Below are positions 1 through 64,000 of a stretch of 64,000 nt of DNA, piece by piece. The DNA lies in the IMG/VR virus record IMGVR_UViG_3300010413_000017, positions 1-64,000 of that record; one strand, 5' to 3'. The position numbers were made by a program, and so were the translations under genes. The number at the start of each line of letters is the position of its first letter. The first letter of the stretch is position 1. The notes beneath the pieces were generated by a model, which saw only the letters and a list, made by a program, of their open reading frames with translations, did not search any database and had not been told where the DNA came from. The DNA is from a virus.

Positions 1-3000
1 ACTGCTTGGGCCACTACTGATGCCACTGCCACTTATGGTGGAGCCAGCGACCTTTGGAGCTCTGGTTATTCCATCAGTGATATCAACGACTCTAGCTTTG
101 GTGTAGACTTATCTGCTACAAATGCTGATGGTAGTGCGGCTCGCGAAGCTAGAGTTGATGCTATTTGGATACGAGTAACTTATGATACTACTCCGACTCT
201 AACAGTCGCCAATACCTCGCATACTCATTCCTCCGAGGCTCCTACCTTATCACAGATAGAGCTAATAATCTCGCGAGTGTACCATTATTCTGCCAGCACA
301 AGCCAAGCATCGACAACTTCTACGAATTATGTCGATGCTCATTCATTAGCCTTTACTCCTGCTGCTAATTCTACTTATTTAATTTTTGGTTCGTGGTTTC
401 TGCGTACAAGTAATACAGGTTATGGTGCTTTTTCCAGATTAATTAATACTACCACCTCTACGACATTTACGGAAGTAAATTTAAATCCTAGGAATAGTGG
501 GAATTATTGGTCCTATGGAGCATTTGCTCAGCAAACATTTGGGGCGAGTCCTTCCACACATACATATAAAATCCAATATCGCCAGTATAGTTTTCTGGCT
601 AGGGCAGTTATTAAGCAATCGAGATTATTTGCTTTAAAACTGCAAGCAAGTGATGAGTTCGCTTCATCTGTAACCCAGTCCTCAACATCTAGTACTGCTT
701 GGCAAGATAAAACCACATTATCATTCACTCCTGCTTCTCCGGGCGATTATCTTTTATTAGCTTCGGCTGAACTTCGCAACAGTTCTGCAAGTTACGATTA
801 TCTCTGTCGCTTGGATGTAGACGGTACACAGTACGATACACAGAATACGAGTCCTAACTATGCTGGCTCTGAGGGCGACACAACTTGGGTTGTTGTTAAA
901 AAGGCCACTCTAACAACCGCGTCGCACACTATTAAAATACAATACAGAAGTGGGAGTGGCTCGGCTACAGCTTATATTCGTCGTGCTTATCTGACAGCTT
1001 TACGTTTAGATGATTTTCCTGGGTACGAATACGCAGAATCAGAGACTAGAAGTGCAACCCTCTCGACTGCTTGGCAAGACAAAACTAGCCTAACAACTTA
1101 CTGTGATGCTTATGACCGTATTGTTCTTGGTACTTGCGGTGGTGATGAAAATTACCATAACAATTCTGCCTGTCTCCGTAGACTCTTGCACGATTCTACT
1201 GATTTGGGTGAGATGGTTCATGAAGATAAAATTGATAACCAAAGACATCGCCCGTATGTAGCTCAAAATGTTTTTTCTTCAGCCGCCACCCATACTTGGA
1301 AATTCCAATACCGTACTAACAATACCTCTGCCACAGCTGGCATACAAGAAGCACGTATCTGTGTTTTACAACTTTACGGCTTAGGGTCGGCAGTCTTAGT
1401 TGTTTCAGACTCTCAGCATGACCACTCAGTTGAGTCTGTTAACTTAACTCAAAAATACAATCTAAGTATATCTTCTTGTTTACATAGCCAGACATCAACT
1501 AGCCCAACGCTGTCTCAACTCCACATTCTAGGTGTAGGTAGTAGTTTACACTCTCATGCGGCGATTAGCCCATTATTAGCACAACTTCATATTTTAAGTG
1601 CAGATAGTGGACTTCACAGTCATACAGCAACCAGCCCATCACTATCACAACTCCACGTTCTAAGTATAGCCGACGGTTTACATCCCCATACCTGTGAGTC
1701 TATAAACTTAATACAGCAGGTTAACTTGGTTGTAGATAATTGCTTACATACTCATATAACTGATAATATTTCCTTAATACAAAAGTATGTACTAGTAGTA
1801 GATAGTGCTCTACATGCTCATACAGCGGAAAGTCCTCTAGTCTCTTCGGTTACATTTATCTCCGAGGTCTACTCTGCTACACACGCTCACTCTGCTGAAT
1901 CTGCTACACTTACACAAGTACACAACCTAACTACGTCTAATGCAAACCATACACATACAGCAGAGAATGTAGTTTTAACTATTACCTATCTACTCGGTGT
2001 TGCTTCCAGTTTCCACAACCACTTAGCTGATTCTGTTTCGCTCTCCCAGACGCACAATCTTGTAGTTGCGAATTGTATTCACCAAACTACATCCCAATCG
2101 CTTATACTGTTTCAGCTTCATGTGCTAGTTGCTCAATTTGCTACTCATACCCATTCAGCCACATCTCTTGACATTTCTCAGCTCCATGTTCTTTTCGTTG
2201 GGAGCACTAGCCACATACACTCGGCTACTTCGGCTTCCCTTGCGCAAACGCATAATCTTGTTGCCAGTGATGCTAACCATCTGCACGTGGTTGATGGTGT
2301 CGAACTCTCCCTCTATTTAGTTATATCTAGTTCTGTCCATAGCCACGTAGTAACATCATTTGCTCTTGGATTCGGCTCCTTTTCTGATTTTATAGAGCCG
2401 AAGATACTCAATCATATTTTTAATGTTGAGTCGTACTCTCCTCCATCTACAGTCTATTTAGCTTTATCTTCAACGAATCCAACAGAAGATGCGAGTGGAT
2501 TGTCGGAGCCGATTGGGGGGGCTTATTCTCGTAAACCGATTACATTCGCAATGGCCGCACAACGACGAATAATACAAAATGCTACAGTCTTATTCGATAC
2601 AGCGACAGCTTCTTGGGGAACTATTAGCTACTGGGCCTTAATGGATTCTGAATCTGCCGGTAACATGATGGTGTATGGGGCGTTTAGCGCTCCTGTGACG
2701 ATTACAAGTGGTAGGGTGGCCGAGGTAAAATCTAGTGAGATAGTTGTTTCTGTGCTTCCACTGCTCACCGCCTCAAAAAACTTAACTGGTGGCTTTTTTA
2801 CCTCGTATGCTAACCTGATTTTAGACTGGTTGTTCAGAGCGCAATCATTATTTCAAAATTACGATATAAAGGTTAGTGCTTGCAATAATATTTCTGACGG
2901 ATGGTCCGAATGGTGGACTTCTCCGAGTGGTGGTGGGTACGCTCCAGTTATTCATAGTTCGTGGACAACCGCCTCTGTAGGCACGTGTTCCAATATTGGA

Positions 3001-37849: not shown

Positions 37850-38002
37850 TTACCAGTTGAACCAACCTCCGCCTGACGGTCCAGGCGGGCCTTGAATTCC
37901 GGGTGGACCTTGAGGCCCGGGTGGACCTTGAGGCCCGGGCGGACAACTACAGCATCCGCCCAACATTAAAAACACCAGAATAACAGTGCACAGTTTATAC
38001 AC
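37850..38002 (-). CDS. Collagen-like small lipoprotein
   Basis: The start is GTG 38002, overlapping the end of the lyase gene by 8 bases, giving 50 residues; a longer frame upstream only shadows the lyase. A signal sequence (MYKLCTVILVFLMLGGC) with lipobox-like LGGC is followed by CSC and a run of collagen triplets (GPQGPPGPQGPPGIQGPPGPSG) ending GGGWFNW. It is probably a lipid-anchored collagen-like trimer on the outer surface of the host envelope, perhaps acting in superinfection exclusion or lysis. Confidence 0.65.
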   Translation of the reverse strand: MYKLCTVILVFLMLGGCCSCPPGPQGPPGPQGPPGIQGPPGPSGGGWFNW

Positions 38003-48481: not shown

Positions 48482-48552
48482 CAGGGGAATCTGGACTCGA
48501 ACCAGAAATGTGAGGTCCAAAACCTCACGTGTTACCTTTACACCATTCCCCT
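48482..48552 (-). tRNA. tRNA-Gln (TTG)
   Basis: A 71-base cloverleaf: acceptor AGGGGAA/TTCCCCT, D stem GTGT/ACAC, anticodon stem TGAGG/CCTCA with loop TTTTGGA (anticodon TTG), and T arm TCTGG-TTCGAGT-CCAGA. Discriminator G; CCA is not encoded. First of three tRNA genes in a cluster between the zinc-ribbon genes. Confidence 0.9.
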
Positions 48553-48560
48553 CTTTTAGT

Positions 48561-48637
48561 TGGTACGGGCAGAGGGATTCGAACCCCCGACAACGTGGCC
48601 CCAAACCACGCACTCTACCAGACTGAGCTATGCCCGT
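48561..48637 (-). tRNA. tRNA-Pro (TGG)
   Basis: A 77-base cloverleaf including encoded CCA: acceptor ACGGGCA/TGCCCGT, anticodon stem CGTGG/CCACG with loop TTTGGGG (anticodon TGG), T arm with GGGGG-TTCGAAT-CCC pairing. It lies 8 bases upstream of tRNA-Gln in the same direction, so the two are probably processed from one transcript. Confidence 0.93.
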
Positions 48638-48638
48638 A

Positions 48639-48758
48639 CTATCGTAGTAATCCACTGTCGAACAACTCAAGAATCCACTCTACGACCATGCTACCTACCA
48701 TGGCAGAGAGGAGTATGACAATTGTGACGATCAGGAAAAATCGTGTATAGTCTCTCAA
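48639..48758 (-). CDS. 39-residue membrane peptide inside the tRNA cluster
   Basis: A TTG-started frame (AAGGA about 9 bases upstream; another TTG lies two codons earlier) encodes a single hydrophobic helix (FFLIVTIVILLSAMVGSMVV) followed by EWILELFDSGLLR. It ends one base before tRNA-Pro. Hydrophobic composition and the ribosome site support it, but its location between two tRNA genes leaves doubt. Confidence 0.4.
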   Translation of the reverse strand: MRDYTRFFLIVTIVILLSAMVGSMVVEWILELFDSGLLR

Positions 48759-48760
48759 TT

Positions 48761-49006
48761 TCAACCGTCCTTGGAGCGGAACGAGGGATACGAACCCTCA
48801 TCTTTAGACGGGAAGTCTAACGTTTTACTTAAACTAGTTCCGCTTGGTTGTTCAATCGCTCGTTCGATGGCACACCTAACAAGAGGGATAAGTATGTCTA
48901 GACAACGTGTGCAATAGAGGTCAGGTAAATCGTAGCCTTGTTCAGCTAATGCAACAACATCGTCAATTAAGTCCCCGCAACCTTGGCAAAAAACATTTAT
49001 GGTCAT
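48761..49006 (-). CDS. Zinc-ribbon protein whose 3' end runs through a tRNA gene
   Basis: The 81-residue protein has CQGCGDLIDDVVALAEQGYD and LYCTRCLDILIPLV, a normal small zinc ribbon. The last 27 residues are read from the tRNA-Gly gene and its flank, on the same strand, before a stop is met. The original protein probably ended near ERAIEQ, and a tRNA took the place of its 3' end. The start ATG overlaps the resolvase-like stop (ATGA). Confidence 0.6.
   Translation of the reverse strand: MTINVFCQGCGDLIDDVVALAEQGYDLPDLYCTRCLDILIPLVRCAIERAIEQPSGTSLSKTLDFPSKDEGSYPSFRSKDG
48772..48843 (-). tRNA. tRNA-Gly (TCC)
   Basis: A 72-base sequence with encoded CCA: acceptor GCGGAAC/GTTCCGC, anticodon stem TTAGA/TCTAA with loop CTTCCCG (anticodon TCC), T arm GAGGG-TTCGTAT-CCCTC and discriminator T, as usual for bacterial tRNA-Gly. 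The D arm is short (GTT TAAGTAA AAC). It overlaps the 3' part of the zinc-ribbon frame. Confidence 0.85.
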
Positions 49007-51243: not shown

Positions 51244-53509
51244 AGTTACTCCATCCACAAAAAGGATTAGGACAAGTTTCACATCCCTCTTTTGCTACCA
51301 AGATTTCTCCGCAATCTGGGCACATCTTAGCGTCCCCAGGTAGTACTCGGGTTGAGCGGTAGATTTCTAATTCATCCTCTGGAGCACTGGGGCTGGCGGC
51401 AGGAATCGAACCCGCGACCGTCTCATTACAAGTGAGGCGCTCTACCTGCTGAGCTACGCCAGCCCGTGCTTGTTGCTCTTGGGTTTGTTGGCTTTGTAAC
51501 TTTCTCTTGCGAATGACTTTTGCAATGCCGTCAGGGGGGGATAAGACTTGTTCTCCATTGTGGAACATTACACGCTCGCCGCCGATGCCCCGCAACTGCT
51601 TCTCGATGTCTTCCCACGACGCTCCATACTTAAGTGCAAGTGTCCCGAGGCGTCCGACAGCGTCGTTCATCGCCGCAATAGTTCTACCTGATTTAGAAAT
51701 CTGAGTCCACATTTCTTTAAACCCTGTATTAGAGTCTTCAAACAGATGCACCCAAAGAGTGCCGTCCCCAGTCTTAACTCTATCTCTGGACCCAGCTAGA
51801 AATTCAGGGGTTTCTAGAGTTACAGAAGACGTATATGACGCATGTTCTGCCTTTTTAGTATGGCGTAGGCTGGGTGGGAGAGATTTGATAATATCCCTGT
51901 ATGCTTTTGTATCTCGTTGGGCTTCCTCTTCTCGACTCCCCTGTCGGTAGAAAGTGATGCCCTTGCACCCAAGTTTATACGCGAGCCTGAAAGCTCTGTC
52001 CACTTCCTCGATAGTTACAGAACTGGGAGCGTTGATAGTCTTGCTTACAGCATTGTCTGTATATTTTTGGAAAGCGGCCTGCATCTTAACATGATGTTCG
52101 ATTGGGACGTCCTTAGATTCGATGAAATAGTCGGGACATTTTATCCCTTCATTGATGGCTTGCCAGTCCTCGTATAGAGGATGCATTACGACCAGCGTTT
52201 CATCTATTGCTTTTTTCTCGTAGACGAATGAGAATACTGGCTCAATCCCCGAGCTACACCCGGCTATTAAACTGAGTGTGCCTGTAGGAGCTATCGTTGT
52301 AACCGTCCCGTTTCTGCGGTCAATAAGGGGTGTATCCTTGCGCCCAGAAGGTAAGTCTGCCCAAGCTGGGTATCCTTTTTCCTTAGCTAACTCTGTAGAA
52401 CAGAGATGAGCTACGTCATTAACGAATTGCATCACCTGTTCAGCTAGGACTAGAGCCGTTTCCATGTCATAACGTATTCGCATCTTAATAAGCATGTCAG
52501 CCCAGCCCATAACACCTAGCCCTATTTTGCGGAACTTTGTTGTTTCTCGTTTTATTTCGATAATTGGGTAATTATTAACGTCAATTACGTTATCAAGAAA
52601 ACGGACGGCTGTTTGCACAACCTCCATGAGCCTGTCCCACTGGATTGCGGGGAATATTGTTCCGGTATCTTCATTTAGTAAAGGCTCAACAAAATTACTT
52701 AGATTGATGCTTCCTAAAACACAAGACTCATAAGGGGACAACGGTTGCTCCCCACAAGGATTTGTGGCTGTAATCTTTTGATACTTTCCGACAGGGTTAG
52801 TCTCGTTAACCTTGTCTATAAAGACAATGCCCGGTTCTCCGTTCTTCCATGCGCCGTCGATTATACTCGCCCAAATGTAATCTACGTGTGGATACCCTGT
52901 CAAGGCGACCTTATCCATGAAATCATCTGTTAAAGCAACCGAGATATTGAAATGTCTCAACTCTCCTTCTTTTTCTTTGCACTTAATAAACTCGAGAACA
53001 TCTGGATGGTCACAGCGTAGAATACCCATCTGCGCTCCTTTGCGAACTCCTCCCTGCTCAATTATTTCTCCTACAACAAAGTCAAAGACACGCATAAATC
53101 CAACAGGTCCAGAGGCTTTGCCTTTTGTTGTACTAATTAATGAACCGCGCGGTCGGAGATTCGAGAAATCGTAACCTGTGCCTCCACCGAAAGCCTGAAC
53201 TTCGACTGCGTCTGTGAGAGCTTTAAAAATAGACTGACGAGAATCTTCGATTGGGATAACAAAGCAGGCGGCTAAGTTACCGTGATTGGCTCCTGCGTTC
53301 CGCAGGGTGGGGGAGTTGGGAAGAAAATCCAAATTGGACATTACTGAGTAGAACTCTTGTTCCCAGTAGTCCTTGTCCTTTTCCACAGAGGCGATATGGC
53401 GTGCTACACGCCTGAACATCTCTTCCGGTGCTTCAATAACGTTGCCACGTGCATCCTGCTGTAGAATCCGCTTTTCTAAAACTCGAATCGCGTTAGCCGA
53501 CAGATTCAA
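51236..53509 (-). CDS. nrdJ: Class II (adenosylcobalamin-dependent) ribonucleotide reductase with a tRNA gene inside
   Basis: The start is TTG 53509 with GGAGG 7 bases upstream; 757 residues. Key residues are Cys82 (AACFVIPIED), Cys252 in NPCGE (250-254) and Cys263 (SCVLGSINL), with GGGTGYDFSNLRPRGS before them. There is no ATP cone. It makes deoxynucleotides using cobalamin. Residues about 683-708 are encoded by a complete tRNA-Thr gene on the same strand. The frame stays open and continues into the C-terminal cysteine domain (CPDCG, CETC, CGWSNCG) needed for re-reduction. A terminator lies just before its ribosome site. Confidence 0.9.
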   Translation of the reverse strand: MNLSANAIRVLEKRILQQDARGNVIEAPEEMFRRVARHIASVEKDKDYWEQEFYSVMSNLDFLPNSPTLRNAGANHGNLAACFVIPIEDSRQSIFKALTDAVEVQAFGGGTGYDFSNLRPRGSLISTTKGKASGPVGFMRVFDFVVGEIIEQGGVRKGAQMGILRCDHPDVLEFIKCKEKEGELRHFNISVALTDDFMDKVALTGYPHVDYIWASIIDGAWKNGEPGIVFIDKVNETNPVGKYQKITATNPCGEQPLSPYESCVLGSINLSNFVEPLLNEDTGTIFPAIQWDRLMEVVQTAVRFLDNVIDVNNYPIIEIKRETTKFRKIGLGVMGWADMLIKMRIRYDMETALVLAEQVMQFVNDVAHLCSTELAKEKGYPAWADLPSGRKDTPLIDRRNGTVTTIAPTGTLSLIAGCSSGIEPVFSFVYEKKAIDETLVVMHPLYEDWQAINEGIKCPDYFIESKDVPIEHHVKMQAAFQKYTDNAVSKTINAPSSVTIEEVDRAFRLAYKLGCKGITFYRQGSREEEAQRDTKAYRDIIKSLPPSLRHTKKAEHASYTSSVTLETPEFLAGSRDRVKTGDGTLWVHLFEDSNTGFKEMWTQISKSGRTIAAMNDAVGRLGTLALKYGASWEDIEKQLRGIGGERVMFHNGEQVLSPPDGIAKVIRKRKLQSQQTQEQQARAGVAQQVERLTCNETVAGSIPAASPSAPEDELEIYRSTRVLPGDAKMCPDCGEILVAKEGCETCPNPFCGWSNCG
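51388..51463 (-). tRNA. tRNA-Thr (TGT) nested in the RNR gene
   Basis: A 76-base cloverleaf with encoded CCA: acceptor GCTGGCG/CGCCAGC, D stem GCTC/GAGC with loop AGCAGGTA, anticodon loop CTTGTAA (anticodon TGT), variable CGGTC, T arm GCGGG-TTCGATT-CCTGC. All conserved tRNA positions are present. One outer anticodon pair is C-A. It lies entirely in frame inside nrdJ, in the same direction. Confidence 0.93.
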
Positions 53510-58556: not shown

Positions 58557-59630
58557 TTATCGTTTGGTGAACCTGCTTTTGCGTTTTGGTACTACAGCGG
58601 CCTCCACTTCTAGCCAGTCCTTCTCGGCAAGCGTTTTGAGTTCTGCTAAGTCTTCGGGAGAGTCCTCAAGGAATGAAATGAATGACTGGCGTTTAAACGT
58701 CTTGTCGCCCCACTTAATCTCTTTGTCCCCATACATATAGTCAATGAGGGAATTAATATCGTCTATGCCGTAGTCGAACAAAATGGAAAACTCGGCCATA
58801 CGAAACGGTTTTGCTACTTTGTTGCGTTTGAAATTAGCCTTGACTGTCACCCCATATGTGCGTTTCTGTCCACGAAACGTTTTATCCAGCTTGCCGGTGT
58901 GGGCTAACCAGCATACTTGGTGTGTATAAAAATCGAGGGCTTTGCCGCCAGTTCTATAGTGCTTCTCACCAAACATCTGCCCAATCTTTTCTCGTACTTG
59001 AGAAATACAAATAAGTGTGGAATCCTTGCCTTGCATACTTTTACACAGATGATTGAAAAAACCTGAGCTAAAAAACTTAGCCTTCTCTGCGCCCATAGAA
59101 CCGGGGGCTTTCTGTTCGTCAAGTATTTTTTGCATTCTGTCAGCCGCCGCGTCTGGCACAAGTGCGTCGACTGAATCTATAACATAAATCAGACACTGCC
59201 CGGGTGTGAGAGCGTTAACGCGCCTAAGATAATCTGTCCCGAAATCCTCCGCGATGGGTGTCTGAATCCATGTGACAGCGCTAACGAAGTCATCTCCATA
59301 CATGTCTTCGATGGGGAAGTCCATGACTCCTTCAACGTTGTTGTAAACGATGAAAAGCTCTTTTATGGGCGGATAGAGGGCAGAGGGTTTCGCTTTTAAG
59401 TTGTAAAAAGCGTGGGCGCAAGCCTCCAAGGAGAGGAGCGTTTTCCCGCTTGAGCCGTCTCCGACAATGTTAACAATCCTACCTCTGGCCCAACCTCCAC
59501 TTAGACCTCTTTGGGAGGCGGCGAGGTTGAGCAGGGTCGAGCCCGTATCAATGAACTCGACCCTTTCACCCCGCTCCACTGGCTTCCGTGCCAGCTTCTC
59601 TGTTTCCTCGACGATTGCTGATTTAGCCAT
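58557..59630 (-). CDS. RecA/UvsX-like recombinase
   Basis: The 357-residue protein has Walker A GDGSSGKT (57-64), YVIDSVDAL as Walker B and LICISQVREKIG as the loop 1 region, with SMGAEKAKFFS before it. It lacks the RecA C-terminal domain and has a basic tail (PKRKSRFTKR). It drives strand exchange in recombination and replication. It shares one base with the ssDNA-binding gene. Confidence 0.87.
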   Translation of the reverse strand: MAKSAIVEETEKLARKPVERGERVEFIDTGSTLLNLAASQRGLSGGWARGRIVNIVGDGSSGKTLLSLEACAHAFYNLKAKPSALYPPIKELFIVYNNVEGVMDFPIEDMYGDDFVSAVTWIQTPIAEDFGTDYLRRVNALTPGQCLIYVIDSVDALVPDAAADRMQKILDEQKAPGSMGAEKAKFFSSGFFNHLCKSMQGKDSTLICISQVREKIGQMFGEKHYRTGGKALDFYTHQVCWLAHTGKLDKTFRGQKRTYGVTVKANFKRNKVAKPFRMAEFSILFDYGIDDINSLIDYMYGDKEIKWGDKTFKRQSFISFLEDSPEDLAELKTLAEKDWLEVEAAVVPKRKSRFTKR

Positions 59631-60622
59631 TATCTACGCCGTCTCGGAGTTGGACGGGGAGCCTCTTCCTCTTCATACTCCTCATCAGGTTGTACCTCTT
59701 CTCTTTCGGCTTCTTCTTCTGCGTACTCTGACTGCCAAAGTTCATGGCAAGGATTGTAGAGTTCGCATCCGGACAAGCACTCTTCATACGCCTCAAACGA
59801 TTCTCCAAAGACCCCACCATGAGGACAGGTAGGAGAACTCTTTTTGAAGCTTCTGGGAGTCCCCGGCACAGTTTCAGCCGCCATATCCTCAACTTCCAGA
59901 CCAGCCCAGAACGCCTTTTTGACCTGCTCATAGGTCGGAATGTCGAGCAGTTCATCTAAGGTCGGAACGTTGTCGATGATTGAGTCAGGAATATCATCTT
60001 CACGCTCTGAGAACTGAAAGCCAGTCCACTGTTGCTGAGTTTTACTGCCTTTGATTTGGAAGGCGATGGAGCGTCCCTCTTCGGCAGTCGGGTCAGCAAA
60101 GGCGACAACCCCGCCAGTCCGAGGCTTTTTGCAGATGTTCATGACGTTATTCTGGAAGAACCAATGAGCCACAGTCCAGATTTGAATGCCTTTAGACTCG
60201 TTGTCTCTGTCCAGAATGGCGTAGACTGAATACCGCTTCGGACGTGCACTATCAATCTGGCCTTTAACATCGTCAGAGGGATTGTCTACCCGCCTTAACT
60301 TCTCGCGGTATTCGCAGATAGGACAGTTCTTGTTGTATGTCCTAAAGAGGCAGATGAAATCGTCCTCATTAGGTCCGATAAACCTATGGACATAGAGGTC
60401 GACAAGGTAAGTGGGTTCTCCCTCGTTCTTCACAGGGTCATTTGGGCCTGCGAAGTAGGGGAGGACATCAACAAGATGTTCGCCAATATCCGGGTTGAAG
60501 ATTGACAAGCTACCTAACTTGTTTCTGTCCAGAATCCCCCTTCGCCTGTCTTCTCGGGTGTCATAGGTTTCCTGCGTGCGTTGGCGTAAGCCCGCACTAA
60601 GTGCTTTTCTGCGATCTTTCAA
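59630..60622 (-). CDS. ssDNA-binding protein (gp32-like)
   Basis: The start is TTG 60622 with AGGAG upstream. The 330-residue protein has a basic N-terminus, an OB-fold-like core with LPYFAGP, HRFIGP and a zinc site around CPICEY (Cys100, Cys103). A second Cys cluster lies at about 270-297 (CPHGG, ECLSGC, PC) and a long Glu-rich tail ends in PRPTPRRRR. This matches gp32-type proteins that coat ssDNA. It is located between recombinase and a mediator candidate. Confidence 0.8.
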   Translation of the reverse strand: MKDRRKALSAGLRQRTQETYDTREDRRRGILDRNKLGSLSIFNPDIGEHLVDVLPYFAGPNDPVKNEGEPTYLVDLYVHRFIGPNEDDFICLFRTYNKNCPICEYREKLRRVDNPSDDVKGQIDSARPKRYSVYAILDRDNESKGIQIWTVAHWFFQNNVMNICKKPRTGGVVAFADPTAEEGRSIAFQIKGSKTQQQWTGFQFSEREDDIPDSIIDNVPTLDELLDIPTYEQVKKAFWAGLEVEDMAAETVPGTPRSFKKSSPTCPHGGVFGESFEAYEECLSGCELYNPCHELWQSEYAEEEAEREEVQPDEEYEEEEAPRPTPRRRR

Positions 60623-60660
60623 ACGGTTTTCTCCTGTATTAAATTTGTGTAGTTAGGGTG

Positions 60661-61152
60661 TTACTGCGCCGGAACAGCTGAACGGCTAGGACGCTTTTCT
60701 CCAAGCGCCTCCTTGAGTTTCTTACTGACCTGTTCCTGAACAAGGTCAGCACCAACAGTGCTACGCGGCTCGGAGAAGTAGCTGGTCAGGTGCAAATCAA
60801 CCAGCTTTTCCAAGCCCTTGCGCTTGTGTTCCAAAGCCCGAACGACGGCTCGGAGCATATTCAGCTCGTATTTAGCGAGGATGATTTCCTCTTCCAGTTC
60901 TTGGAATTCGGGCTGTCTGGCGATGAAGTTTTTGAGGACAGCTTCTGTGACACGTTCTGTTGCAGTTTCTCTGAGTTGTTGGTCGAGCTGAGCGATTAAG
61001 ACATCTTTCCTGAGTTCCAAGCGTGAGACTACACGCTCGGCTTCGACTGCCTGCTCGCTATAGCTCAACACGTTGCTAGGATGTTTTACCCATTCGTCGT
61101 CGAGGGCAAATTTGTCAATGCTGACATCTGCCTCTACCTGAGATTTGTCCAT
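60661..61152 (-). CDS. Helical protein, recombination mediator candidate
   Basis: The 163-residue protein is almost all helix/coiled coil (QAVEAERVVSRLELRKDVLIAQLDQQ, FQELEEEIILAKYELNMLRAVVRAL). It starts with GGAGG upstream and directly precedes the ssDNA-binding gene. By position and shape it could load the recombinase as UvsY does in T4; sequence alone does not prove this. Confidence 0.55.
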   Translation of the reverse strand: MDKSQVEADVSIDKFALDDEWVKHPSNVLSYSEQAVEAERVVSRLELRKDVLIAQLDQQLRETATERVTEAVLKNFIARQPEFQELEEEIILAKYELNMLRAVVRALEHKRKGLEKLVDLHLTSYFSEPRSTVGADLVQEQVSKKLKEALGEKRPSRSAVPAQ

Positions 61153-61171
61153 AATTCCTCCTTACTTTATT

Positions 61172-61189
61172 ATAGCCTGTACCGGCTAT
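61172..61189. other. Hairpin between array 1 and the coiled-coil gene
   Basis: ATAGCC-TGTACC-GGCTAT, a perfect 6-pair stem, lies 36 bases beyond the last regular repeat of array 1. It may end or process the array transcript. It is weak as a terminator. Confidence 0.4.
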
Positions 61190-61225
61190 TTTGGAAGTTA
61201 AAAGTGTGAGTGCGCTCAGCTTCTT

Positions 61226-61459
61226 TGGGTTCCTTATTGTTTTTGGCTCGCTTTTGGTGTTTGGTGTCCTTGGACAAGATAGCTCGCTTGCCACTTTTGG
61301 GTTTCTTAGAGTCAATGGCTCGCTTTCCTCTGATGGGTTTCTTATTATAACTGGCTCGCTTGCCACTTTTGGGTTTCTTAACCTATAGGACTCGCTTCTG
61401 GTTAATGGGTTTCTTTATGCAGGTGGCTCGCTTATATCTGATGGGTGCCTTGGGCGTGT
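61226..61459. repeat. TIGR-like array 1 (36-base period, two alternating repeats)
   Basis: On the + strand repeat B (consensus TGGGTTTCTT) starts at 61226, 61262, 61298, 61334, 61370, 61406 and 61442, and repeat A (TGGCTCGCTT) at 61244, 61280, 61316, 61352, 61388 and 61424, each with exactly 36-base spacing. All gaps between A and B are 8 bases and differ, except gccacttt, which occurs twice (61290 and 61362). End repeats are degenerate. On the - strand the units read AAGAAACCCA-N8-AAGCGAGCCA-N8. Two spacers per 36-base unit is the hallmark of tandem interspaced guide RNA arrays, not CRISPR. Confidence 0.9.
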
Positions 61460-61463
61460 TGAC

Positions 61464-62492
61464 TTAAGCCACATCGTCAGGTGAAACAGACTCTCGTCCG
61501 GCCTCTACAGGAACCGGTGTAGCGTCATAAACCCAGCCACGTTCCTCTGGCATAATCGTTCTGTGCGGCCCGTCTAGAACTGCCTCTGCGTATAGAGGTG
61601 AAGTAGGTAATCCCAAAAGTGTTCTGCCTACATACCAATAGTCCGCAAGGAAGTGCTTCATAATGACACGCAGTGCGGCCATGTGCCTGTGATTAGGAAC
61701 GGTCTCTTTCCATGGTTTCTCGACAAGCCTGTGCCGACCGTTATGTAAGCCAAATGTCTTAACAAGTTTCTCAGAGTTATCCAACTTGGAGCGCGTTTTG
61801 TCGTACAGATAACCATACGCGCTACCTTTGTTCCTCTGTTTCATCTGTGAGTTAGCCATAGTGAAGAGAGCAGTCCGAAGAGACCTGTTACCACCACTAG
61901 GTTCCCCCGGAGTATAGCGGGCGTGGGCGGGAGTGTGCAGTCCAGTGTACCTCCACAGACTGGAGGCGTGCTTCGCCTTTGCCAGATCTATGTAGACAAG
62001 GCAGTAAGCTATGGTCACAAAGCCAACAGAATGTACTCCCAATGCGGCTTGCACCAACGGGTTCGTTTGGGCAATCTCGTTAACCGTTTTTTTGAGTGCG
62101 TGCGTACGCTTGCTCAACAGAGACGTTAATTGGTCGAGTTGTATAGACAGAAACTCGGCTGTTTCTGGGTTAAGAGTATCTGTACGCCTTCGATACGCGC
62201 GTAACTGATTGCCGATTTTGGTGTGGAGTTTCAAGACTTGGTTCCTGTCATCCACTTGGGCTTTGAGACGTTCAAACAGTTCAGGACGCTCCCGAAAGAT
62301 GCCATGGTGCCGCATGTGAGTGATGGGGTCTACCACGCATGTGTTATCGGGAGTATACCTTCCACCTTTGCTTTTGGGTTTCAGCCTGTGTGTGTCGAAG
62401 CTTTCAGTAGGTTCACCTAGTGGTTGTCCAGTAAATGCGTCAACTCCAAGTTGTTTCTCCTTAGTCGTACGTTTCAGTTCTTCTTTTGCCAC
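61464..62492 (-). CDS. TasH-like protein: HNH nuclease fused to a Nop/Transposase_20-like RNA-binding region
   Basis: The start is GTG 62492 with AAAGGAGAG upstream; 342 residues. The N-terminal HNH motif has His35 (FDTHRLKPKSKGG), Asn50 (TPDN) and His62-His63 (MRHHG). A helical linker at about 75-145 leads to a C-terminal region with ALGVHSVGFVTIA, LWRYTGLHTPA and GGNRSLRTALFTMAN, the pattern of the IS110 Transposase_20 / Nop guide-RNA-binding fold. Arrays flank it on both sides. In TIGR-Tas systems such proteins bind 36-base guides and the HNH domain is the presumed DNA-cutting part. The RuvC-like DEDD domain of IS110 is absent. Confidence 0.85.
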   Translation of the reverse strand: MAKEELKRTTKEKQLGVDAFTGQPLGEPTESFDTHRLKPKSKGGRYTPDNTCVVDPITHMRHHGIFRERPELFERLKAQVDDRNQVLKLHTKIGNQLRAYRRRTDTLNPETAEFLSIQLDQLTSLLSKRTHALKKTVNEIAQTNPLVQAALGVHSVGFVTIAYCLVYIDLAKAKHASSLWRYTGLHTPAHARYTPGEPSGGNRSLRTALFTMANSQMKQRNKGSAYGYLYDKTRSKLDNSEKLVKTFGLHNGRHRLVEKPWKETVPNHRHMAALRVIMKHFLADYWYVGRTLLGLPTSPLYAEAVLDGPHRTIMPEERGWVYDATPVPVEAGRESVSPDDVA

Positions 62493-62527
62493 GCTGTGCT
62501 CTCCTTTTGAGATTCGTTACTAAACGC

Positions 62528-62663
62528 TGGGTTTCTTCAAACTGATGGCTCGCTTAAGGTTTTTGGGTTTCTTGAGTATGCTGACTCGCTTTCCAATGTT
62601 GGGTTTCTTAGATGATGTGGCTCACTTGGTATTTATGGGTTTCTTTCAGGGCTTGGCTCTTAC
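62528..62663. repeat. TIGR-like array 2 (36-base period), between polymerase and tasH-like gene
   Basis: Repeat B (TGGGTTTCTT, invariant) starts at 62528, 62564, 62600 and 62636. Repeat A starts at 62546 (TGGCTCGCTT), 62582 (TGACTCGCTT), 62618 (TGGCTCACTT) and, degenerate, 62654. The seven 8-base spacers in + orientation are caaactga, aaggtttt, gagtatgc, tccaatgt, agatgatg, ggtattta and tcagggct. None equals a spacer of array 1. The array fills the space from 6 bases before the polymerase stop to the ribosome-site region of the tasH-like gene. Confidence 0.9.
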
Positions 62664-62668
62664 CTAGT

Positions 62669-64000
62669 TTATAGCCCGTTGGGGGCGTACTTCCCATCTA
62701 AAAACTCAGTATAGGGAACCTTTTTCTTAGTTGACCAAGGAGCGTCGATATCACACAACTCGAACTCAACTTCGAGTGGCACGTTACACCAAGAATGTAC
62801 TTGCAACGCCCTTTCAGACATAATCCAGTTCGCCATAGTCACAACTCGATGAAGTTCCTCTGGCTGAACACTCAGCAAAATACAATCGTGAATCTGGCCG
62901 AGGATAACTGAACTTAGCCTGTCTTTTTTTAGAAACTTGCTGAGTTCTATCAGGCTCCACAGTAAGATATGAAAAGCTGTTCCCTGAATTGGAGTGTTCA
63001 AAATCTCATTCCTAGCCAAGTAGCCTTGGCGTCTGAACCCATATTTGAGGGGTACACGACCGGTCTTATAATAGCGTGCTACCCATTTTTCTTTCCATTT
63101 GGCGTAGGTAGAGAACTGTTTCCAGAACCTGTTCTCTTCTGCTTGAATGTGCTCTGTGAAAACATCCAAAGAAGTAAGCTTCTGGTTCATTAAATGTTCT
63201 CGTAAAGAAGAGCCGTCGGCAAGGAGTAGTTGCTCTCCGTCTTTCCAGAGTTTCTCAGCACAAGGTCTGTACCACGAGCCGTATAACTGAGCAAAAACAA
63301 ACGCTCCTTTAACAAGATTGCGTACAGCTTTTGTAATCTGGTCTCGGGGTAATAGGTATACTCGTTCGGTCTGGTCCCTGTGCATATCTGACGTGGGGTC
63401 TTTACAGTAACGAATAAGTTCAGGGTCTTGGGTGAACGTTGCCGCAATCCGGACTTCGTGCATTCCAAAGTCTATTTCAAGAAGTTGTTGGCCGTGATGA
63501 GGAAACATACCGCTTCGCACAAGCTGAGTCATACGCTCGTCGCGAGCTGGAATGTTTTGTAAATTAGGACGGCTCGATGAACCTCGATATGTTCTTACTC
63601 TGTGAAGATGGAAAAAGGGATGTAAAGTCTCCTTATAGATTTCACGGATAATCCCTTTTATATAGGTAGATTCAGTTTTAGTTGCACTACGGAGTCGAGT
63701 TACATCAATCAAGAAAGAGCGTAGACTCTGTTGTGGAAGAGTCCGAGAGAACTCCTCAATGTCCTCTTTGTCTAAGGTGGGATTTCCCTTCGCTGACTTC
63801 TTCCTAGGTTCGATCCCAACATAGTCAAAGAGAAGAGTTTTGAGTTGTGGAGCAGACCCGGGGTTAAGTGGAACGCCTGTCTTCTTTTCCCATAACCGAG
63901 CGTAGTGAGAGTCCATGACTCTCGCTTTTGCGGCCTTGCTCTCCTCTGAGATAGTGGTAAACGCTTCTTGGAATACCTCAGAGGAAGCTCTAAAGCCTGT
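62669..64000 (-). CDS. polA: DNA polymerase I family polymerase, 5' end outside the window
   Basis: The frame is open to the right edge with no stop, so ATG 63916 is probably internal. Family A motifs are motif A LLEIDFGMHEVRIAA, motif B RNLVKGAFVFAQLYG and motif C GQIHDCILL, where the usual HDE is HDC. RPNLQNIPARDERM precedes motif A. Only the palm/fingers/thumb part is visible; any exonuclease domain lies beyond the window. It replicates the phage genome and is followed by array 2. Confidence 0.9.
   Translation of the reverse strand, partial: TGFRASSEVFQEAFTTISEESKAAKARVMDSHYARLWEKKTGVPLNPGSAPQLKTLLFDYVGIEPRKKSAKGNPTLDKEDIEEFSRTLPQQSLRSFLIDVTRLRSATKTESTYIKGIIREIYKETLHPFFHLHRVRTYRGSSSRPNLQNIPARDERMTQLVRSGMFPHHGQQLLEIDFGMHEVRIAATFTQDPELIRYCKDPTSDMHRDQTERVYLLPRDQITKAVRNLVKGAFVFAQLYGSWYRPCAEKLWKDGEQLLLADGSSLREHLMNQKLTSLDVFTEHIQAEENRFWKQFSTYAKWKEKWVARYYKTGRVPLKYGFRRQGYLARNEILNTPIQGTAFHILLWSLIELSKFLKKDRLSSVILGQIHDCILLSVQPEELHRVVTMANWIMSERALQVHSWCNVPLEVEFELCDIDAPWSTKKKVPYTEFLDGKYAPNGL

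What the first reader, a model, noticed from the sequence alone, without database searches (positions are those of the whole stretch)
61226..61459. Array 1: thirteen 8-base spacers with one exact duplication
Repeat starts keep perfect 36-base spacing over seven units, showing that length is under selection. The spacer gccacttt occurs twice with the same flanking repeats (27 of 28 bases identical), evidence of unit duplication by recombination rather than adaptation of new spacers.
Basis: seen in the sequence. Interest (0 to 1): 0.7.

Follow-up and report, generated by a model that had tools for sequence, protein, structure and literature searches.

The report
Phage TIGR-TasH guide-RNA array
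This stretch of an uncultivated phage genome is a tandem-spacer guide-RNA (TIGR) array next to the gene for its RNA-guided HNH nuclease TasH, a new member of a system described in 2025; comparison with relatives shows that unit length is locked while the 8-base spacers are swapped one at a time.

Summary
The repeats at 61226-61459 are array 1 of a TIGR-Tas locus read on the minus strand: edge repeat AAGCGAGCCA, 8-nt spacer A, loop repeat AAGAAACCCA, 8-nt spacer B, giving 36-nt units. A second array of 4 units (62510-62663) lies upstream of the gene between them (61464-62492), which encodes TasH. TasH matches solved TasH structures (E 5.6e-82) and passes NCBIfam TIGR_Tas_endo. The biochemically tested Salicola phage CGphi29 system has the same edge repeat and the same 8+8 spacers.

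In 33 loci spacer length is 8 in 400/402 (A) and 394/402 (B), so the length constraint is supported. The duplicated spacer is half a guide: B is shared, A is not, and the "27 of 28" is mostly consensus repeat. Spacer reuse within a locus is about 125-fold above background and always in register. Orthologous arrays also show wholesale replacement of single spacers with repeats and length intact, so "recombination rather than adaptation" is only half supported.

No natural target was found: in TasH-phage DNA, true guides matched no better than decoys.

The parts
61464..62492 (-). tasH: 342-aa TIGR-associated nuclease (N-terminal HNH, then Nop/IS110-like RNA-binding domain); GTG start, stop TAA 61466-61464 overlaps the first truncated edge repeat of array 1
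   Evidence: phmmer to PDB TasH 21kl_A E 5.6e-82 over residues 14-323; NCBIfam NF052498 TIGR_Tas_endo 102.3 bits, cut-off 100; alignment of 16 relatives with invariant D33, N50 and >=90% H59/H63 in the HNH part
61213..61464 (-). TIGR array 1, 7 units / 14 spacers of 8 nt, downstream of tasH; [quoted passage not shown]
61226..61459 (-).
61362..61369 (-). Spacer B of unit 3, AAAGTGGC (first copy of the duplicated spacer); unit's A spacer TATAGGTT
61290..61297 (-). Spacer B of unit 5, AAAGTGGC (second copy); unit's A spacer TTGACTCT
61218..61225 (-).
62510..62663 (-). TIGR array 2, 4 units / 8 spacers, upstream of tasH, ending just before its ribosome-binding site

Best explanation
A TIGR-TasH system of an uncultivated tailed phage. 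The minus strand is transcribed through array 2, tasH and array 1. The pre-tigRNA is cut in the middle of each edge repeat into 36-nt tigRNAs (AGCCA, spacer A 8 nt, loop repeat 10 nt, spacer B 8 nt, AAGCG). A TasH dimer binds one tigRNA, spacer A pairs with one DNA strand and spacer B with the other, and the two HNH domains cut both strands of a 16-bp target written A followed by the reverse complement of B. The fixed 8+10+8+10 spacing is set by protein-RNA geometry, hence the exact 36-base period. Spacers turn over by short in-register copying of single spacers or units and by replacement with new sequence, while the repeats stay. The likely role is competition with other mobile DNA. Shown here: anatomy, homology, length conservation, turnover pattern. 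Shown in the literature for the homologous CGphi29 TasH: 36-nt processing and two-strand cutting. Inferred: that this copy is expressed and active, the role, and what its spacers target.
For: TasH homology: PDB E 5.6e-82, NCBIfam equivalog above cut-off. Same edge repeat AAGCGAGCCA and 8-nt spacers in Salicola phage CGphi29, for which PMC12045711 reports 16 nt of total spacer, 36-nt tigRNAs and HNH-dependent cutting. Arrays on the tas strand in all 33 records, flanking the gene. A blind scan for the repeat pattern alone, with no protein information, returned 51 stretches, of which 34 carry a Tas ORF and 7 more are pieces of contigs whose Tas lies on another piece. Spacer length 8 in 400/402 and 394/402. 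Spacers diverge far faster than repeats and flanks between close relatives.
Against: No expression data. No natural target: 414 guides against about 1.6 Mb of TasH-phage DNA gave 0 exact hits in the expected geometry, against 2 for decoys. No clear rho-independent terminator after array 1, although published arrays typically have one. TasH carries a C-terminal extension of about 20 aa that most relatives lack.
Confidence: 0.96

Rival explanations
1. A CRISPR array or CRISPR-like adaptive array with an as yet unseen Cas module.
For: Regularly interspaced repeats with unique spacers.
Against: Two alternating 10-nt repeats and 8-nt spacers; the adjacent gene is TasH; PADLOC finds no defence family in it; no Cas gene among the neighbours examined.
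Confidence: 0.01
2. A repetitive coding sequence or DNA-binding iterons (e.g. replication origin or regulator sites) that merely lie next to tasH.
For: 36 is a multiple of three, so long ORFs run through the array in several frames; the locus lies among replication genes.
Against: Between L015 and L016 the 8-nt blocks are 36% identical while repeats are 97% identical, which a conserved 12-residue protein repeat would not give; 1-nt length variants in relatives would shift the frame; strand and position follow tas in 33 records.
Confidence: 0.02
3. The array is a TIGR array, but its spacers regulate or protect the phage's own genome rather than attacking other DNA.
For: Found in a phage; TasA-type relatives without nuclease exist with the same repeats.
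Against: No guide matches its own contig exactly in the expected geometry, and self hits are not above decoys; this TasH keeps the HNH residues; spacers turn over between close relatives, unlike fixed regulatory sites.
Confidence: 0.12
4. Spacer changes are due only to whole-unit duplication and loss, with no source of new spacers.
For: In-register duplicates within loci; indels in whole units between L002 and L003.
Against: In 19 of 24 near-duplicate pairs the other half differs at >=4 of 8 positions; all eight spacers differ between L015 and L016 with equal unit number.
Confidence: 0.2

Closest known systems
TIGR-TasH of Salicola phage CGphi29 (SpTIGR; Faure et al. 2025, PMC12045711)
   Same: About 45% identical TasH over most of its length; identical edge repeat AAGCGAGCCA; loop repeat AAGACAACCA against AAGAAACCCA; 8-nt spacers; truncated edge repeats at both ends; array directly downstream of tas.
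   Different: Two arrays flanking the gene here, one (11 units) in CGphi29; the window's TasH lies among PolA/UvsY-like/gp32/UvsX genes, that of CGphi29 among head genes; window TasH has a C-terminal tail; a clear terminator-like hairpin with a T run only in CGphi29.
TIGR-TasR / TasA systems
   Same: Nop-type RNA-binding domain, dual-repeat array, 36-nt unit.
   Different: RuvC nuclease or no nuclease instead of HNH; the reported TaTIGR and FpTIGR arrays have 9-nt spacers (PMC12045711).
IS110 transposases with bridge RNA (Pfam Transposase_20)
   Same: C-terminal domain weakly similar (Pfam E 0.021, below cut-off; NCBIfam IS110 29 bits against cut-off 140).
   Different: No DEDD transposase domain, an HNH instead; guide array instead of one bridge RNA.
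CRISPR arrays
   Same: Interspaced repeats with unique spacers.
   Different: No Cas genes seen, no long repeats, two alternating short repeats, split 8+8 guide.

Membership tests
TIGR-Tas (TasH type) | Nop-domain Tas protein next to the array | tested here: met
   PDB TasH E 5.6e-82; NCBIfam NF052498 102.3 bits above cut-off 100
TIGR-Tas (TasH type) | N-terminal HNH nuclease with conserved motif residues | tested here: met
   Match to TasH starts at residue 14 and includes the HNH part; D33 and N50 invariant, H59 and H63 in >=90% of 16 relatives and present here
TIGR-Tas (TasH type) | Two alternating 8-12-nt repeats (edge, loop) with short fixed spacers, 36-nt unit | tested here: met
   10-nt repeats, 8-nt spacers, 18-nt steps without exception
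TIGR-Tas (TasH type) | Box C (CCA) at the 3' end of both repeats, with edge and loop ends covarying | tested here: met
   Both consensus repeats end CCA and begin AAG in the window and in most relatives
[quoted passage not shown]
   AGTCA...GAGCG for array 1; GAGCCA...TAACG for array 2
TIGR-Tas (TasH type) | Predicted rho-independent terminator after the array | tested here: inconclusive
   No minus-strand terminator called; only weak hairpins after array 1
TIGR-Tas (TasH type) | 36-nt tigRNAs processed in the edge repeat | not testable with these tools
   Needs small-RNA sequencing; shown for CGphi29 TasH in PMC12045711
TIGR-Tas (TasH type) | RNA-guided cutting of both strands by spacers A and B | not testable with these tools
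   Needs biochemistry; shown for CGphi29 TasH in PMC12045711
CRISPR-Cas | Single repeat type of 25-36 nt and Cas proteins | tested here: not met
   Two 10-nt repeats; neighbours are TasH, PolA, UvsY-like, gp32, UvsX
IS110 transposase | DEDD RuvC domain plus Transposase_20 above the curated cut-off | tested here: not met
   Pfam 15.6 bits against cut-off 21.3; NCBIfam 29.1 against 140

The most novel reading that the evidence does not exclude
TIGR arrays have a spacer-renewal process acting on single 8-nt spacers: new sequence is put between existing repeats without changing repeat sequence, unit number or the 36-nt period. Half a guide, not the unit, would then be the thing that is gained and shared, and the duplicated B spacer with two different A spacers seen here would be a trace of it.
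Probability: 0.3. Interest if true: 0.8.

Novelty: new member of a known kind. Interest (0 to 1): 0.5.

Why it matters
TIGR-Tas was described in 2025 and the authors list the origin, upkeep and expansion of the arrays and their natural targets as open questions (PMC12045711). This locus is a clear TasH member with two arrays, and with its relatives it gives the first quantitative view, as far as I could find, of array change: length locked, repeats kept, single spacers copied in register or replaced outright. That makes the array-growth question testable with time series of phage populations, and it narrows the target question by showing that the guides do not match the TasH phages examined.

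Tried and rejected
1. Targets in the own 73.86-kb contig and in 382 kb, then about 1.6 Mb, of TasH-phage DNA, geometry A.rc(B) deduced from the published 8-nt 3' overhangs, gaps 0-2, 0-2 mismatches: no excess over decoys that re-pair A and B within a locus.
2. IMG/VR scans with the two guides that share spacer B (TATAGGTT-GCCACTTT and TTGACTCT-GCCACTTT): 27 and 57 contigs, scattered over unrelated genes with redundant copies, so they look like chance; no decoy scan of that collection was run.
3. Search for close relatives of this phage through its PolA: none in IMG/VR; megablast of 12 kb against phage records: none.
4. TasH relatives in 84,980 bacterial and archaeal genomes: no confirmed hit in one scan.
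5. Whole-unit duplication as the only process: rejected because the other half usually differs. Crossing-over between loop repeats should give B(i)=B(i+1) together with A(i+1)=A(i+2); this paired pattern does not appear in the list of near-duplicates.
7. No structure prediction was run, because solved TasH structures already match at E 5.6e-82.

Full report
What is there. On the minus strand, 61464-61213 reads as seven units of edge repeat (AAGCGAGCCA), 8-nt spacer A, loop repeat (AAGAAACCCA), 8-nt spacer B, at exact 18-nt steps. The first edge repeat is cut at its 5' side (AGTCA, overlapping the TAA stop of the gene before it) and the last at its 3' side (GAGCG). A second array of four units lies at 62663-62510. 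The gene between them, 62492-61464, encodes 342 residues.

Identity. The protein matches solved TasH structures (21kl and seven further entries; E 5.6e-82 over residues 14-323) and, more weakly, the entry 9mty annotated as an IS110 C-terminal-domain protein, whose 331 residues equal the length of TasR in the paper. It passes the curated NCBIfam model 'TIGR-Tas system RNA-guided endonuclease' (102.3 bits, cut-off 100) and fails the IS110 transposase model (29 against 140). Pfam's Transposase_20 is below its cut-off, and PHROGs files the protein under 'transposase', which is misleading. The published TasH system, Salicola phage CGphi29, has the same edge repeat and 8-nt spacers; PMC12045711 reports 16 nt of total spacer for it, 36-nt tigRNAs, and HNH- and tigRNA-dependent cutting. 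Membership therefore rests on protein family, domain make-up and array anatomy, all tested; RNA processing and cutting of this copy are inferred.

Relatives. Protein searches gave 31 IMG/VR loci plus CGphi29 and Microcystis phage Mvi-JY20. All carry arrays on the tas strand; 453 units were read, 402 of them cleanly. Spacer A is 8 nt in 400 and spacer B in 394. In 11 of 30 loci with a downstream array the first spacer starts 3-4 nt after the tas stop codon, so the stop lies inside the truncated edge repeat. A scan for the repeat pattern alone found 51 stretches, 34 with a Tas ORF and 7 more in contigs whose Tas is on another piece; several of these Tas proteins match only the Nop part, so the same repeats appear to serve nuclease-free Tas proteins too. 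No TasH relative was confirmed in 84,980 cellular genomes.

Is the length under selection? Yes, by two tests. First, the near-absence of length variants across loci whose spacers have nothing in common. Second, orthologous arrays. L002 and L003 (tas about 92% identical at DNA level) keep shared units in the same order at 36-nt spacing, with a two-unit indel; of 16 aligned spacers 11 are identical, 2 differ at one base and 3 are replaced (4, 6 and 6 mismatches), one of them B alone with A kept. L015 and L016 have four units each, no gaps, repeats 97% identical, neighbouring DNA about 90%, but spacers 36%. At >=99.7% genome identity the arrays compared are unchanged. A third pair, L200 and L219, shares one near-identical unit, one A spacer within one base, and one B spacer with a different A.

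Duplication. Within loci, exact in-register spacer identity is 9 of 5314 comparisons; between loci it is 2 of 147594; cross-register (A with B) it is 0 of 5314 within loci. Shuffled spacers give 0.15 on average and at most 2 in 300 shuffles. But in 19 of 24 near-duplicate pairs, the window's included, the other spacer differs at four or more positions. The thing copied or kept is often half a guide. Because orthologous arrays also show spacers replaced by unrelated sequence, new spacers do enter; the source is unknown, and exchange with unseen arrays of the same population is one possibility. 'Recombination rather than adaptation' therefore goes beyond the evidence.

Targets. The published cut geometry (8-nt 3' overhang, cutting 5' to the base paired with the fifth spacer base) implies a top strand of A followed by rc(B); the other order would leave 5' overhangs (my deduction). 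With this geometry and gaps of 0-2, 414 guides gave no exact and 78 one-mismatch hits in about 1.6 Mb of TasH-phage DNA, against 2 and 59 for re-paired decoys; self hits were not enriched. Two IMG/VR scans gave chance-like scatter. No guide was found to match its own genome or the TasH phages sampled beyond chance; what they target is unknown.

Setting. Downstream of array 1 follow, on the same strand, a UvsY-like protein, a gp32-like single-strand binding protein and a UvsX/RecA-like recombinase; upstream is a family-A DNA polymerase. PolA is also within about 5 kb of tasH in eight relatives, and L011 has gp32, tasH and UvsX in a row. CGphi29 has its system among head genes, so this setting is common but not required. 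No strong terminator follows array 1, so read-through into the recombination genes is possible.

Verdict. A sound observation of a new member of a published system. The interest lies in array evolution, where the relatives give clear numbers, not in the kind of system.

Noticed in passing
window 58557-64000 (minus strand): tasH and its arrays sit inside a replication/recombination module (PolA, UvsY-like, gp32-like, UvsX/RecA-like); PolA is near tasH in eight relatives too. Whether this is more than chance for genomes of this size was not tested.
   Followed up: partly
window 61464-61523: TasH has about 20 extra C-terminal residues (DATPVPVEAGRESVSPDDVA) absent from most relatives; the stop codon lies in the first truncated edge repeat.
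   Followed up: partly
L028 (3601-8879): One phage contig with six short TIGR arrays of 2-5 units scattered over about 5 kb around a single tasH.
   Followed up: no
L207 (1205-4593): A contig with two Tas-like genes lacking the HNH part and three arrays, related to L203.
   Followed up: no
L076 (16130-16283): A four-unit array in contig G021 some distance from its tas gene, the only distant array found in about 1.6 Mb.
   Followed up: no
L195, L219, L200: Tas proteins of about 290 residues matching only the Nop part use the same edge and loop repeats as TasH systems; repeat type does not predict nuclease presence.
   Followed up: partly
window 48482-48843 and 51391-51463: Four tRNA genes on the minus strand.
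   Followed up: no
window 1516-1669 and 37890-37944: Other tandem repeats: 2.3 copies of a 66-base unit and 3.1 copies of an 18-base unit.
   Followed up: no
window 61464-62492 (phrog_4285, phrog_2199): PHROGs names Tas-like proteins 'transposase'; annotation pipelines will mislabel TIGR-Tas genes.
   Followed up: no
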